Shown in pieces: positions 60,674 through 64,000 of a DNA stretch of 64,000 nucleotides. The stretch covers positions 3,038,001 through 3,102,000 of the forward strand of contig OY755198.1 of NCBI GenBank assembly GCA_963576735.1, given 5' to 3'. The position numbers and the translations under genes are program-made. Every line of letters starts with the position of its first letter. Positions within the stretch are counted from its first letter, which is position 1. The notes beneath the pieces were generated by a model that had not been told where the DNA came from, searched no databases, and saw only the letters and a program-made list of their open reading frames with translations. Source of the stretch: Bedellia somnulentella (lineage: Eukaryota; Arthropoda; Insecta; Lepidoptera; Bedelliidae).

Positions 60674-61150
60674 TTAAAAAACTTTATTTTCTTTAAACCA
60701 TTTGTTTAAACACATTACATTTTTTAAAGCGCATGTATCAGTGTGATACACACAACTTATAACATCGATTGAATCTTTATATTTATCATACAAACTTAGT
60801 AAACTAGGACAATTTTTATCTTCTAGATTATAAACATTATTATTTTTTGTTATTTCTATAAGCCACTTTACCTTTTCCATTCCTTTAGTGTAAATAATCT
60901 TATTTGATAATAGTTGTACAATATAATTTTTATGACATGAATATGGTATGAAACCTTCTTTCCAATAAATTGCTCTATTTCTCTCAATCCAACTTACTTG
61001 TCTTCTTTCTGTTTTACTTAGATCATAATACGCAAATGGTGGTTTTATCAGAAAAACTTGTACTTGTTTTTCATGTATCATAGCTATTTCTTTAAGAATG
61101 AATTGATTATCGTCTGTTTTAAAACCTTGTACGTCTACTATAACATTCAT
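60674..61150 (-). CDS. Unknown 158-aa protein of the Polinton/adintovirus-like element
   Basis: Starts VIVDVQGFKTDDNQFILKEI: a short hydrophobic strand with an acidic pair, then a Lys-Glu motif. Aromatic and basic middle (PPFAYYDL, WIERNRAIYW), and a C-terminal HTDTCALKNVMCLNKWF. I recall similar proteins from insect genomes but cannot name a function. The opening strand would suit an RNase H-like or exonuclease-like fold; this is only a guess. Its ATG overlaps the stop of the capsid gene before it by ATGA. It is the last gene before the palindrome. Confidence 0.7.
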   Translation of the reverse strand: MNVIVDVQGFKTDDNQFILKEIAMIHEKQVQVFLIKPPFAYYDLSKTERRQVSWIERNRAIYWKEGFIPYSCHKNYIVQLLSNKIIYTKGMEKVKWLIEITKNNNVYNLEDKNCPSLLSLYDKYKDSIDVISCVYHTDTCALKNVMCLNKWFKENKVF

Positions 61151-62352
61151 GATAATTTTCTAACTATTTTACTCAAGGGTTTATATTCAATCAAACGATC
61201 ATTGATAATTAAACAGTATGCTGTTGTGTTTTCTGGTAAGTATTCAGAACATTCGATTTCTATTCGTACATCTACAGGACCAGTTTTCAAATTATCGTTT
61301 TGTCTTGAGCAATCAATTATAAACAACGGAGCACTATCTTTAAAATTTATTAGATTAAGCAGTGGGTCTGCTGGAATGTTATAATATGACTGGCGGAATT
61401 TAGTGTACATATCGTATAATATACTGTATTTATCCTCATTAAACTTTAAATGCATAGATTCATATGGATAATAATGTGAATTTAGAAAAAGTGTAACATT
61501 TGTAACATTGCAATGATCAAATTTTGAACAGTCTTTTGTTCTGTTATTCTTTTTATCAGTTTGTAAACCCAAAATCACATACCGAGGTTTTTCTATTTGT
61601 GAAGCAGTCTTAACTGACCAGGAATGTTTAACTGTTTTAGGTAATATAGGGTATTCGTATAAATCCCAATTTCTGAATGCAATTTGTATTGGTTTATCTT
61701 TTTCAAGAAGTTTAAGTAGCGATAGTTTCTCATAATCTGATACTTTAATATGGGGTACTCGCCACTGTACTTTTTGTATGTTAATTTTAACATAAGCTAC
61801 ATCATCTGATAAACTGACGCTGTTTAATACAGTATTACCCCTGTTTAAAATAAGTTCATGCTTGCAGTTCATTACAATTTTTTTATAATCTTCCGCAAAT
61901 CCTAATATTTTGTTGAGAGGTATAACAGCGCTAAAACCCTGACTGTTCATAGTTCCATTTAAATTCCAACCCCATATAGCTGCAGCTTTGCTCTCCCCCT
62001 CATTCATTGATATATATGACTTCATAGTAGTTGTTATGCCAGCATTTTTGATGCGGTCTATTTCAATACCATTCATTTCATATCTGATATCTTGAAACAG
62101 AAATAGAACTGGGTTGTTAGTGAGCTTGATGGCTTTTTGTATAGGTTTGTCATCTTTGCCCCTAAGTTTTATATCTCCTTCTATATAAATAGCACTAGCT
62201 GATGGTAATATGTATATGTCTTGCTGATGAATTGGAATTCTTATTTCATCATTTTCACTAAAATTGTTATTATATGGATTATAAGTATGCATTTCAAAAC
62301 TTTCAATTGAATTATCATACTGGGGGAAATCACTTATTCCGAGAATACTCAT
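61147..62352 (-). CDS. Major-capsid-like protein (double jelly-roll type), Polinton/adintovirus-like
   Basis: 401 aa, intact. Beta-rich throughout, with IYILPSASAIYIEGDI near residue 50, FLFQDIRYEMNGIEIDR near 85 and VKTASQIEKPRYVILGLQT near 250. The last part, FIIDCSRQNDNLKTG and VDVRIEIEC, resembles the closing strands of hexon-like capsid proteins of Polinton/adintovirus elements as I recall them. It would form the trimeric capsomer. It is shorter than most relatives (about 500 aa or more, from memory). It overlaps both neighbours by ATGA. Identification also leans on the penton and protease next to it; an unrelated structural protein cannot be excluded. Confidence 0.68.
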   Translation of the reverse strand: MSILGISDFPQYDNSIESFEMHTYNPYNNNFSENDEIRIPIHQQDIYILPSASAIYIEGDIKLRGKDDKPIQKAIKLTNNPVLFLFQDIRYEMNGIEIDRIKNAGITTTMKSYISMNEGESKAAAIWGWNLNGTMNSQGFSAVIPLNKILGFAEDYKKIVMNCKHELILNRGNTVLNSVSLSDDVAYVKINIQKVQWRVPHIKVSDYEKLSLLKLLEKDKPIQIAFRNWDLYEYPILPKTVKHSWSVKTASQIEKPRYVILGLQTDKKNNRTKDCSKFDHCNVTNVTLFLNSHYYPYESMHLKFNEDKYSILYDMYTKFRQSYYNIPADPLLNLINFKDSAPLFIIDCSRQNDNLKTGPVDVRIEIECSEYLPENTTAYCLIINDRLIEYKPLSKIVRKLS

Positions 62353-62495
62353 ATTTTAAATCCTAAGGCCTGAAGAAACTTTTTGTTGTTTTTTGTAATT
62401 TTTTTATTAAGCTTAACACGTGTGCTCACTTTAACACTACGGGGGATATTGATACGTTTAGTATTCGTATTTTGAACTTTATAAAATACTATCAT
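62349..62495 (-). CDS. 48-aa basic protein between the two capsid genes
   Basis: ATG at 62495, TGA at 62351-62349. Rich in Lys, Arg and Asn, with a C-terminal KKFLQALGFKI. ATGA overlaps join it to the penton gene upstream and to the capsid gene downstream, exactly filling the 139-bp gap between them. That both ends fit is the main support. A role as a small DNA- or capsid-binding protein is possible but unproven. Confidence 0.68.
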   Translation of the reverse strand: MIVFYKVQNTNTKRINIPRSVKVSTRVKLNKKITKNNKKFLQALGFKI

Positions 62496-63196
62496 GGTGT
62501 CCTACGTAGATGAAGACGCAATTGAATAGTTTCTCCTCTGAAATTAATGTAATTTCCGTGTTCGTCTAGTATCTTTACGCTCAATGATGATATATTATTT
62601 CTGTGAACAGGCAGATATATAATATTTTTCGGTATTTCTATATACCTATGCCCGGGTGAAACGTCTGGCACAAATTCGTGTATAACATGTGACGGTGATC
62701 CGTTAATATACGATCCTTGAACTAGATCACATTCGATCCTTATCACAGACACAGGGAGAATGTTTACCGGACTCATAGATTCATACCATTTATTCGGTTC
62801 TAACTTTGTGTTCTGAAAACCAAGCAAGTGTCCAATACTATTGTTTGCTGTAAAGTTCACGCTTTCAGAACAATATAAGTAACATTTCAGTGTATTATTA
62901 CTCGGCTTAATTTTGATTTCACAATCGATGATGTTTGTTTCAAGATATTCCGCTATATCGTAAAGATCATAAGTTCCCTCTGGTATTATTAATTGCTTAT
63001 TTGCTTCACCATAAGTAAATATATTATTGCGAGATGTAACATTTGGTATAGAGTTTAAAGCAGAAAAGTATAATAATCCACATTCGCAATTTTCCCAAAG
63101 AGTTAAAGGAGGTTGGAATTGTGATTCTAAGTGTGACTTACTTCCAGTGATGGTTAATGTAATAGACATTATGTTACACGGATGCCCAAAGTACAC
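62492..63196 (-). CDS. Penton-like minor capsid protein (single jelly-roll)
   Basis: 234 aa from the ATG at 63196; a second Met at codon 9 (63172) could also serve. Middle: YDLYDIAEYLET and NNSIGHLLGFQNT. The C-terminal half, SPSHVIHEFVPDVSPGH, IEIPKNIIYLPVHRNNI and NFRGETIQLRLHLRR, is the typical ending of penton-type minor capsid proteins of Polinton/adintovirus elements. It would occupy the fivefold vertices. It starts 24 bp after the protease stop and is uninterrupted. Confidence 0.82.
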   Translation of the reverse strand: MYFGHPCNIMSITLTITGSKSHLESQFQPPLTLWENCECGLLYFSALNSIPNVTSRNNIFTYGEANKQLIIPEGTYDLYDIAEYLETNIIDCEIKIKPSNNTLKCYLYCSESVNFTANNSIGHLLGFQNTKLEPNKWYESMSPVNILPVSVIRIECDLVQGSYINGSPSHVIHEFVPDVSPGHRYIEIPKNIIYLPVHRNNISSLSVKILDEHGNYINFRGETIQLRLHLRRTP

Positions 63197-63220: not shown

Positions 63221-63598
63221 CTATTTATTATTCCTTTTAGACCAAAAGCTTCTTAGAAACTGAAGACATAGATGACCACAATTAAAAGGGTGGTTTTTCT
63301 GAATATTTTCATTATTATATTTTATATCACAATTATCTACATAAGAAATGAATTCTTTTGGTGGCCTTAGATTACCATAACTATCAAAATATGTTATATT
63401 TTTATAATATTTTACATAGGCTACCCAATGAGAACCTGGGTTTTTTGAGCTATCTAGATTAATAATACCACATTCTTTTAAAAATGGGTACTTAGGAAGC
63501 TCATCTCGCATGAAAACACCGCGGAAGAATGGGATATCTTGAGCATTGTTTATAATGTCAATATTAGTCAGGGGTCGATTAGGTAGCCGATTACTTAG
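63221..63598 (-). CDS. Adenain-type cysteine protease, no AUG for its conserved N-terminus
   Basis: Capsid maturation protease of the C5 (adenain) type. Catalytic His in NPGSHWVAYVKYY, acidic residue in TYFDSYG and Cys in FNCGHLCLQFL, in the right order and spacing. The first Met (63511) falls inside the conserved motif FRGVFMRD. The same frame is open upstream to a stop at 63607-63605, and its residues LTNIDIINNAQDIPFFRG look like the family's normal N-terminus. No AUG precedes them. The frame is the -1 frame of the preceding gene at its slippery heptamer, so expression as a frameshift fusion is likely (see findings). Confidence 0.85.
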   Translation of the reverse strand, partial: LSNRLPNRPLTNIDIINNAQDIPFFRGVFMRDELPKYPFLKECGIINLDSSKNPGSHWVAYVKYYKNITYFDSYGNLRPPKEFISYVDNCDIKYNNENIQKNHPFNCGHLCLQFLRSFWSKRNNK

Positions 63599-63604
63599 TT
63601 TTTT
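63595..63604 (-). promoter_or_regulatory. Candidate -1 ribosomal frameshift site
   Basis: On the minus strand: A AAA AAC (63604-63598) in the phase required (X XXY YYZ), followed immediately by TAA (63597-63595). A -1 shift continues at CTA AGT AAT CGG into the protease frame without a stop. No strong downstream stem-loop or pseudoknot was found by eye. Confidence 0.65.
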
Positions 63605-64000
63605 TTATTCGAAATGAATATGCCGAAGCCTTTATTATATGGCTTTACTTCTAAACCTCTACCGATGCACAAACCTTCCATCTTTTCGTTATGTCGCTTT
63701 AATTCAGCAAAATGTTTTTTAGCTGCTTTAAACTCATTAATAACTTTAGTGATGGCTGCTGCCCCACCAGCTAAGCTTCCCACAGCAGAAAGACCAGCAA
63801 ATATAGGTATGAGCGGAAGAATACCACCAGTCTTTGGGACAGGAATCATACGAGGAAGTTTTACAGATGAATCTTTCATAGACTCCTTAGCTGCTGCTAT
63901 TGCTAGTTCGATAGCCATTTTCTTACACTTAGGCTTCAGTTTTTGTAAATGTTTTCTTGTATGGGAAACAATCTTTTTAAAATGTTTCTTCAAGCCAACT
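63595..64000 (-). CDS. Basic, Gly/Ala-rich core/membrane-active-like protein (partial)
   Basis: 132 codons are visible from 63993, where the codon is TTG, not ATG. The frame is open to the window edge, so the true start lies outside. The N-terminal part is Lys/Arg-rich (HFKKIVSHTRKHLQKLKPK). Next comes a hydrophobic segment LIPIFAGLSAVGSLAGGAAA, then a charged helix KAAKKHFAELKRHNEKMEG and a conserved-looking end GLEVKPYNKGFGIFIS. Proteins of this layout accompany Polinton-type capsid genes and are compared with adenovirus core or lytic proteins (pX/pVI); that parallel is from memory. It ends AAT AAA AAA AAC TAA. Confidence 0.72.
   Translation of the reverse strand, partial: VGLKKHFKKIVSHTRKHLQKLKPKCKKMAIELAIAAAKESMKDSSVKLPRMIPVPKTGGILPLIPIFAGLSAVGSLAGGAAAITKVINEFKAAKKHFAELKRHNEKMEGLCIGRGLEVKPYNKGFGIFISNKKN

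What the first reader, a model, noticed from the sequence alone, without database searches (positions are those of the whole stretch)
63221..64000. Programmed -1 frameshift may fuse the core-like protein to the adenain-type protease
Seen: the upstream gene ends AAT AAA AAA AAC TAA. A AAA AAC is a canonical -1 slippery heptamer in the correct phase, directly before the stop. The -1 frame runs from the C of AAC straight into the protease. Its 29 or so codons before the first Met match what I recall of the protease N-terminus in this family (LTN-DI...FRGVFMRD). No AUG exists there, because a stop in that frame lies at 63607-63605. Known: A AAA AAC drives -1 frameshifting in many viruses, and adenovirus protease is activated by a peptide from pVI. 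Inference: the element makes a fusion in which the protease is tethered to its own structural partner. I know of no description of this for Polinton-like elements.
Basis: partly seen in the sequence, partly recalled or inferred. Interest (0 to 1): 0.9.

Follow-up and report, generated by a model that had tools for sequence, protein, structure and literature searches.

The report
Frameshift fuses virus core to protease
A virus-like element in an insect-type genome carries, at the end of its inner-core gene, a conserved ribosome-slippage signal that should attach the virus's own protease to a share of its core proteins, much as retroviruses do with Gag and Pro.

Summary
On the minus strand the core gene ends AAT AAA AAA AAC TAA. 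The heptamer A AAA AAC (63604-63598) is in phase and the -1 frame opens directly into an adenain-type protease (63604-63221). Here a -1-frame stop (63607-63605) precedes the heptamer; the first in-frame Met is residue 32.

The genome holds six divergent subfamilies. All 83 copies that align from protease residue 1 (of 98 loci) have A AAA AAC and an adjacent core stop (TAG 47, TGA 27, TAA 9); the -1 frame stays open for at least 110 codons in 74 of 83. Five subfamilies have exactly six A, which disfavours a miscounted A-run or transcriptional slippage. Of 26 amino-acid-conserved core codons only the heptamer's AAA and AAC are invariant. The segment before Met32 evolves as -1-frame coding (pN/pS 0.27) and belongs to the predicted fold.

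The element is an insect Maverick/adintovirus with a PLA2-type core. No shared 3' stimulator was found. A preprint suggests slippery sites for Penton and Hexon-Adenain; my searches found no report of core-adenain.

The parts
63595..64000 (-). 3' part of the core gene (PLA2X/CAP type); continues beyond the window to a 259-aa ORF; ends ..SNKKN stop
   Evidence: one homolog is named PLA2X [Spodoptera moth adintovirus 2]; PF08398 E 8.8e-12 in the full ORF
63598..63604 (-). slippery heptamer A AAA AAC, in phase with the core frame
   Evidence: in 83 of 83 aligned copies
63595..63597 (-). core stop codon TAA directly after the heptamer
63605..63607 (-). stop codon TAA in the -1 frame immediately upstream of the heptamer
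63221..63604 (-). adenain-type cysteine protease in the -1 frame, 127 codons from the heptamer (KKLSNRLPNRPLTN...)
63509..63511 (-). first in-frame Met (residue 32) of the protease frame; a start here would drop helix 14-20 and most of strand 27-32
62492..63169 (-). next ORF, 225 aa from its first Met (candidate minor capsid protein by position only; not tested)
   Evidence: no Pfam match at E 1
61147..62352 (-). major capsid protein, double jelly roll
   Evidence: PF21738, 383 bits
60674..61150 (-). 158-aa ORF; its ATG overlaps the MCP stop as ATGA
   Evidence: same length as ORF8 of Sf Maverick (158)

Best explanation
The element is an endogenous insect Maverick/adintovirus (Eupolintoviridae). 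Ribosomes translate the PLA2-type core gene; most stop at the stop codon next to the heptamer and release free core protein. A minority, with tRNA-Lys and tRNA-Asn on A AAA AAC, slip back one base and read on into the protease frame, making a core-protease fusion. Shown: the heptamer, its phase, the adjacent stop, the -1 frame, conservation over six subfamilies, nucleotide-level constraint on the heptamer, amino-acid constraint on the -1 segment, and the predicted adenain fold. Inferred: that shifting occurs and at what rate, and what it is for: a fixed minority of protease molecules, packaged by being tethered to the core protein, as in retroviral Gag-Pro. The core's conserved C-terminal hairpin would lie directly before the protease, where it could act in cis as pVIc does in adenovirus (least certain step).
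For: 83 of 83 copies aligned from protease residue 1 have A AAA AAC + stop; subfamily sizes 9, 26, 27, 12, 7, 2; stops TAA/TGA/TAG differ while the heptamer does not. -1 frame open for at least 110 codons in 74 of 83. Of 26 core columns with one residue in all six representatives (Met and Trp left out), 2 have one codon in all six, and these are the AAA and AAC of the heptamer; the codon before ends in A in each. Between heptamer and Met32, five representatives (F left out for indels): pS 0.77, pN 0.21; differences at codon positions 1/2/3 of the -1 frame are 90/30/164. Proteins from outside: core homologs end in KN in 53 of 56 (P0089-P0144) and 72 of 80 (P0209-P0288; P0209 is nearly the window's own), and the residue before KN can in every case have a codon ending in A. 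P0013's -1-frame extension is compatible with a core C-terminus at 23 of 23 positions; best of 60 shuffles 14. None of the 120 listed (of 902) core relatives is longer than 279 aa, although lengths to about 400 were allowed. Met32 lies inside the predicted fold (pLDDT 92); the best PDB matches are adenovirus proteases. A_AAA_AAC is named among the most shift-prone sites for mammalian ribosomes (PMC5009743, passages).
Against: No 3' stem or pseudoknot shared by the six representatives was found. In the window copy, stretches of 67, 97 and 127 bases fold no better than shuffles; the 147-base one has z -1.98 (8 of 200 shuffles as good) through a hairpin some 100 bases downstream, far for a stimulator. 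z-scores of -2.9 (E) and -4.1 (F) are not shared; pseudoknot scan: 8 of 30 shuffles as good for the window copy. No transcript, ribosome profile or peptide was available. Subfamily C (27 of 83 copies) has an ATG in the -1 frame just upstream of the heptamer. In weaker core relatives P0145-P0208 only 11 of 64 end in KN, and 31 of 64 have xKN within the last 26 residues, at least one of them (P0184) elsewhere in the tail. Copies within a subfamily are not independent. Of ten proteins tested for frame compatibility, three beat all 60 shuffles in the -1 frame (P0013, P0220, P0258), one in +1 (P0096), and six beat none (P0007, P0017, P0025, P0088, P0122, P0242).
Confidence: 0.88

Rival explanations
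1. Transcriptional slippage: RNA polymerase adds an A in the A-run, so some mRNAs carry one continuous frame.
For: The window family has a run of 8 A, long enough for some slippage.
Against: The 74 aligned copies of the five other subfamilies have exactly 6 A, and A AAA AAC keeps its phase in all; a polymerase does not read phase.
Confidence: 0.05
2. The protease is started independently: at Met32 from its own transcript or internal entry, at a near-cognate codon, or, in subfamily C, at the ATG inside the core gene.
For: Subfamily C has an upstream -1-frame ATG; the window copy has CTG at residue 12; an isoleucine codon (a weak near-cognate) stands at residue 24 in all six representatives; a distant Maverick family in the genome has a protease ORF with its own Met behind an MCP-like ORF.
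Against: No ATG before Met32 in the representatives of the five other subfamilies; the first Met downstream of the heptamer is residue 32 in 81 of 83 copies, 30 in L065 and 33 in L091. CTG, GTG or TTG codons stand at different places in A, C, E and F and are absent in B and D. The segment before Met32 is under amino-acid constraint and part of the predicted fold. It leaves the invariant AAA AAC codons unexplained.
Confidence: 0.05
3. An intron removes the core stop and joins the frames.
For: GT and AG dinucleotides that would fit exist in each representative (6 to 28 pairs).
Against: No pair lies at the same place in all six; the window copy has only 6; a splice would not need a heptamer.
Confidence: 0.015
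4. Assembly error or decay: the frames are really one ORF.
For: Length variants may occur: the tail of P0096 fits the +1 frame; 9 of 83 copies have an early stop in the protease frame.
Against: Nine window-family copies on six contigs share the junction string; all 83 aligned copies have the heptamer and stop; no one-frame fusion among 120 listed relatives.
Confidence: 0.005

Closest known systems
Sf Maverick 1 and 2 (Spodoptera frugiperda; PMC5803895, passages and section 11 part 1) and Spodoptera moth adintovirus 2 (PLA2X record)
   Same: CAP with PLA2 (258 aa; here 259), PRO, ORF7 (404 aa; here the 401-aa MCP), ORF8 (158 aa, as here) and INT (310 aa, as here), in the same order by the paper's table
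   Different: CAP and PRO are treated as separate ORFs; the two uses of 'frameshift' in the text concern errantiviruses; ORF6 is 148 aa there, the ORF in that position here 225 aa
Retroviral gag-pro / gag-pol -1 frameshifting (review PMC5009743, passages)
   Same: Structural protein then protease in the -1 frame; same class of heptamer
   Different: Double-stranded DNA virus/transposon; unrelated proteins (PLA2-type core, adenain-type cysteine protease); no 3' pseudoknot found here
Adintovirus Penton slippery sequences and potential Hexon-Adenain ('Hexain') fusions (Buck et al. 2024, PMC11071296, passages)
   Same: Predicted -1 frameshift in the same virus group, in one case with Adenain as partner
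   Different: Other genes (Penton C-terminus, Hexon); KnotInFrame predictions; the core-Adenain junction does not appear in the passages read
Adenovirus adenain with pVIc (1avp, 1nln)
   Same: Protease fold; in adenovirus the protease is activated by the C-terminal peptide of a core protein (PMC8537868, passages)
   Different: Chain of 204 residues in 1avp, made as its own protein; here 127 residues, and the core C-terminus would be joined to it in the same chain

Membership tests
Programmed -1 ribosomal frameshift site | In-phase X XXY YYZ heptamer | tested here: met
Programmed -1 ribosomal frameshift site | Conserved -1 frame starting at the heptamer, coding for protein | tested here: met
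   open at least 110 codons in 74 of 83 copies; constrained as amino acids
Programmed -1 ribosomal frameshift site | Heptamer conserved as nucleotides over diverged relatives | tested here: met
   AAA and AAC are the 2 invariant codons among 26 conserved columns
Programmed -1 ribosomal frameshift site | 3' stimulatory stem or pseudoknot a few bases downstream | tested here: inconclusive
   none near the heptamer in the window copy beyond shuffles, none shared; the pseudoknot scan is crude
Programmed -1 ribosomal frameshift site | Fusion product made | not testable with these tools
   no expression data on hand
[quoted passage not shown]
   PF21738, 383 bits
Maverick/Polinton (Eupolintoviridae, adintovirus) | Retrovirus-like integrase | tested here: met
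   310-aa ORF next to the core gene, rve E 1.2e-12
Maverick/Polinton (Eupolintoviridae, adintovirus) | Adenain/Ulp1-type protease | tested here: met
Maverick/Polinton (Eupolintoviridae, adintovirus) | Protein-primed DNA polymerase B, packaging ATPase, terminal repeats | not tested
   outside the window; a PolB family search was sent and never answered
Peptidase C5 (adenain) | Family profile | tested here: inconclusive
   PF00770 14.4 bits, under the 21.3 cut-off; a profile of relatives finds 1avp at E 1.2e-5
Peptidase C5 (adenain) | Fold and catalytic His, Gln, Cys | tested here: met
   Foldseek ranks 1-5 are adenovirus proteases; H59, Q102, C109 invariant in the 82-row alignment; which residues are catalytic is recalled
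Retroviral Gag-Pro | Homologous retroviral proteins | tested here: not met
   core and protease belong to PLA2X and adenain-type families; the likeness is in mechanism only

The most novel reading that the evidence does not exclude
A large lineage of insect Mavericks/adintoviruses uses -1 frameshifting as retroviruses do: to set the ratio of structural core protein to protease and to carry the protease into the particle by fusion. The core's C-terminal hairpin, placed directly before the protease, is its built-in activator, the covalent counterpart of adenovirus pVIc. Lineages whose core ends GLFL-stop may use U UUU UUA instead.
Probability: 0.4. Interest if true: 0.86.

Novelty: new variant of a known kind. 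Interest (0 to 1): 0.74.

Why it matters
It would give a group of DNA viruses/transposons the Gag-Pro logic known from retroviruses and suggest how their short adenain-type protease is made, dosed and packaged. It would explain why the protease ORF of this copy lacks an early AUG and why many database entries of its relatives begin at a late Met. It also ties the protease to a pVI-like partner and makes protease activation in Polintons directly testable.

Tried and rejected
Scans of viral contigs with single proteins and alignments gave no relative. One genome-contig scan gave L001 (a bacterial MAG), a 19-residue match that I judge to be chance. RNA folding and a home-made pseudoknot scan gave no shared stimulator; the scan is crude. 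Splice pairs: none shared. P0007, P0017, P0025, P0088, P0122 and P0242 did not beat shuffles. A core search of the genome with P0160 (92 matches) showed, on inspection, mostly core genes at protease loci already held and no new lineage; I made no formal pairing, and two weak matches (C7:16227032, C69:26846111) are not next to a protease match. The structure model of the core piece is weak (pLDDT 69); only its C-terminal hairpin (10-residue blocks of 66-80) is used, as a lead.

Full report
What is there. [quoted passage not shown] The core ORF is cut by the window edge. Read from the genome copy it has 259 aa with a PLA2-like domain, and a 310-aa rve integrase lies behind it. One relative of the core is named PLA2X of Spodoptera moth adintovirus 2. 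The order and most sizes match Sf Maverick 1/2 (PMC5803895, section 11 part 1); ORF6 differs (148 aa there, 225 here). So the element is an insect Maverick/adintovirus. PolB, ATPase and the element's ends were not examined.

The junction. The core ends AAT AAA AAA AAC TAA. The -1 frame reads TAA AAA AAA CTA AGT AAT CGG, so a -1-frame stop (63607-63605) precedes the heptamer and the frame is then open for 127 codons. The first Met is residue 32. With the codon use of the core, 225-aa, capsid and 158-aa ORFs, A AAA AAC would end a gene with probability 0.00065.

Copies in the genome. The genome (549 Mb, 486 contigs, window at C30:3038001-3102000) gave 103 protease matches. 98 loci cover them: 30 came with the search and 68 by region. 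83 align from protease residue 1. All 83 have A AAA AAC at the start of the protease frame and a stop codon of the core frame directly after it (TAG 47, TGA 27, TAA 9). They fall into six groups by sequence (A window 9, B 26, C 27, D 12, E 7, F 2). Recount: in 80 of 83 the best core alignment is in the frame that puts the protease at -1; in L018, L057 and L094 it is not, though the junction string is the same. 74 of 83 keep the protease frame open for at least 110 codons; 9 have an earlier stop; 5 have a stop within the last 60 core codons. These are decayed copies. Of the other 15 loci, 7 are partial or broken (4 with AAAAAAC plus stop at the core end) and 8 belong to a distant family whose protease ORF contains its own Met and follows an MCP-like ORF. 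The A-run is 8 in the nine copies of group A and exactly 6 in the 74 others. A plain sequencing error or polymerase slippage on a long run therefore does not explain the family.

Selection. Between one representative each of A-F, shared residues of the core piece often use different codons (for example A-E 18 of 55 identical, C-D 43 of 74). Of 26 columns with one residue in all six (Met and Trp left out), two have the same codon in all six, the Lys AAA and Asn AAC of the heptamer; the codon before ends in A in each. Asn codons in these core pieces are otherwise AAC 11, AAT 16 (heptamer codons taken off). Between heptamer and Met32 (27 codons, A-E; F left out for indels) pS is 0.77, near saturation (1.07 for A-B), and pN 0.21; differences fall 90/30/164 on codon positions 1/2/3 of the -1 frame. 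This is the pattern of a stretch translated in the -1 frame. In the structure model (82-row alignment, pLDDT 92) it forms helix 14-20 and strand 27-32; a start at Met32 would remove most of this. Foldseek's best matches are adenovirus proteases, 4wx4, 1avp and 1nln first; a profile finds 1avp at E 1.2e-5. The Pfam model of adenain stays under its cut-off (14.4 against 21.3 bits).

Outside this genome only proteins were available. Close core relatives end in KN in 53 of 56 (P0089-P0144) and 72 of 80 (P0209-P0288; P0209 is nearly the window's own). The residue before is K, Q, E, S, T, A, P, R or G, each of which can have a codon ending in A. Three more (P0122, P0220, P0258) continue after KN for some residues, so KN is not simply a C-terminal tag. 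Frame-compatibility tests on ten proteins (60 shuffles each): P0013, a protease called from an upstream start in the -1 frame, fits a core C-terminus at 23 of 23 positions (best shuffle 14). The tails of P0220 (11 of 14, best 10) and P0258 (8 of 11, best 7) fit the protease N-terminus in the -1 frame. P0096 fits it in the +1 frame (14 of 19, best 13) and may be a length variant. P0007, P0017, P0025, P0088, P0122 and P0242 do not beat shuffles. Weaker relatives (P0145-P0208) end in KN in 11 of 64 and have xKN in the last 26 residues in 31 of 64. No one-frame core+protease ORF is among the 120 listed of 902 (longest 279 aa).

Mechanism. A_AAA_AAC is listed among the most shift-prone sites for mammalian ribosomes (PMC5009743, passages). 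The likeliest course is tandem slippage of tRNA-Lys and tRNA-Asn, giving ...KKN-LSNRLP...; unshifted ribosomes stop at once (inference). No shared 3' structure was found. In the window copy the only fold better than most shuffles (147 bases, z -1.98) owes it to a hairpin some 100 bases downstream. So the rate may be low, or a stimulator may be of a kind I did not model. In retroviruses the same layout fixes the ratio of Gag to Gag-Pol (PMC8537868 and PMC5009743, passages); that it also packages the enzyme is recalled. In adenovirus the protease is activated by a peptide of a core protein (PMC8537868, passages). The core's conserved C-terminus is predicted, at modest confidence, as strands 110-113, 116-121 and 124-129 just before the shift site. 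A cis-acting activator is therefore a fair but untested idea.

Weak points. Copies within a group are not independent; the weight lies on six groups of one genome. Group C has a -1-frame ATG five codons upstream of the heptamer (27 copies), so it could in principle start the protease there. Isoleucine codons, weak near-cognate starts, occur before Met32 in all six representatives. No expression data exist here.

Prior art. Searches of the open PMC library (listings, of which seven papers were opened for passages) turned up one relevant mention: Buck et al. 2024 (PMC11071296, passages), with possible -1 shifts in some adintovirus Penton ORFs and potential Hexon-Adenain fusions. Starrett et al. 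2021 on adintoviruses is not held, so I saw nothing of it. The absence claim is limited to those searches.

Mended against the calls: contigs of the window family (six, not seven), A-run lengths (exactly 6), openness of the -1 frame (74 of 83), the core-frame exceptions, near-cognate codons, the 147-base fold, and the tally.

Noticed in passing
window 61147-61150, minus strand: MCP stop and the start of the 158-aa ORF overlap as ATGA, a layout that could couple termination to reinitiation.
   Followed up: no
L043-L064, L066, L067, L074, L075, L094 (subfamily C): An ATG in the protease frame lies five codons upstream of the heptamer inside the core gene, in these 27 of 83 copies only.
   Followed up: partly
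L100-L107: A distant Maverick family in the same genome has its protease ORF, with its own Met, behind an MCP-like ORF; L100 and L101 were read in all three frames and show no core gene in front.
   Followed up: partly
L011-L015 (window copy is L013): These five copies differ pairwise by 1 to 12 bases in 3381, pointing to recent spread.
   Followed up: no
proteins P0147, P0179, P0183, P0184, P0186, P0204: These core relatives stop right after G[LI]FL, where a U UUU UUA slip site would fit; no DNA was available to test it.
   Followed up: no
proteins P0096, P0242: Core relatives that seem to read into the protease region in the +1 frame, possibly after a homopolymer length change (only P0096 beats its shuffles).
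   Followed up: partly
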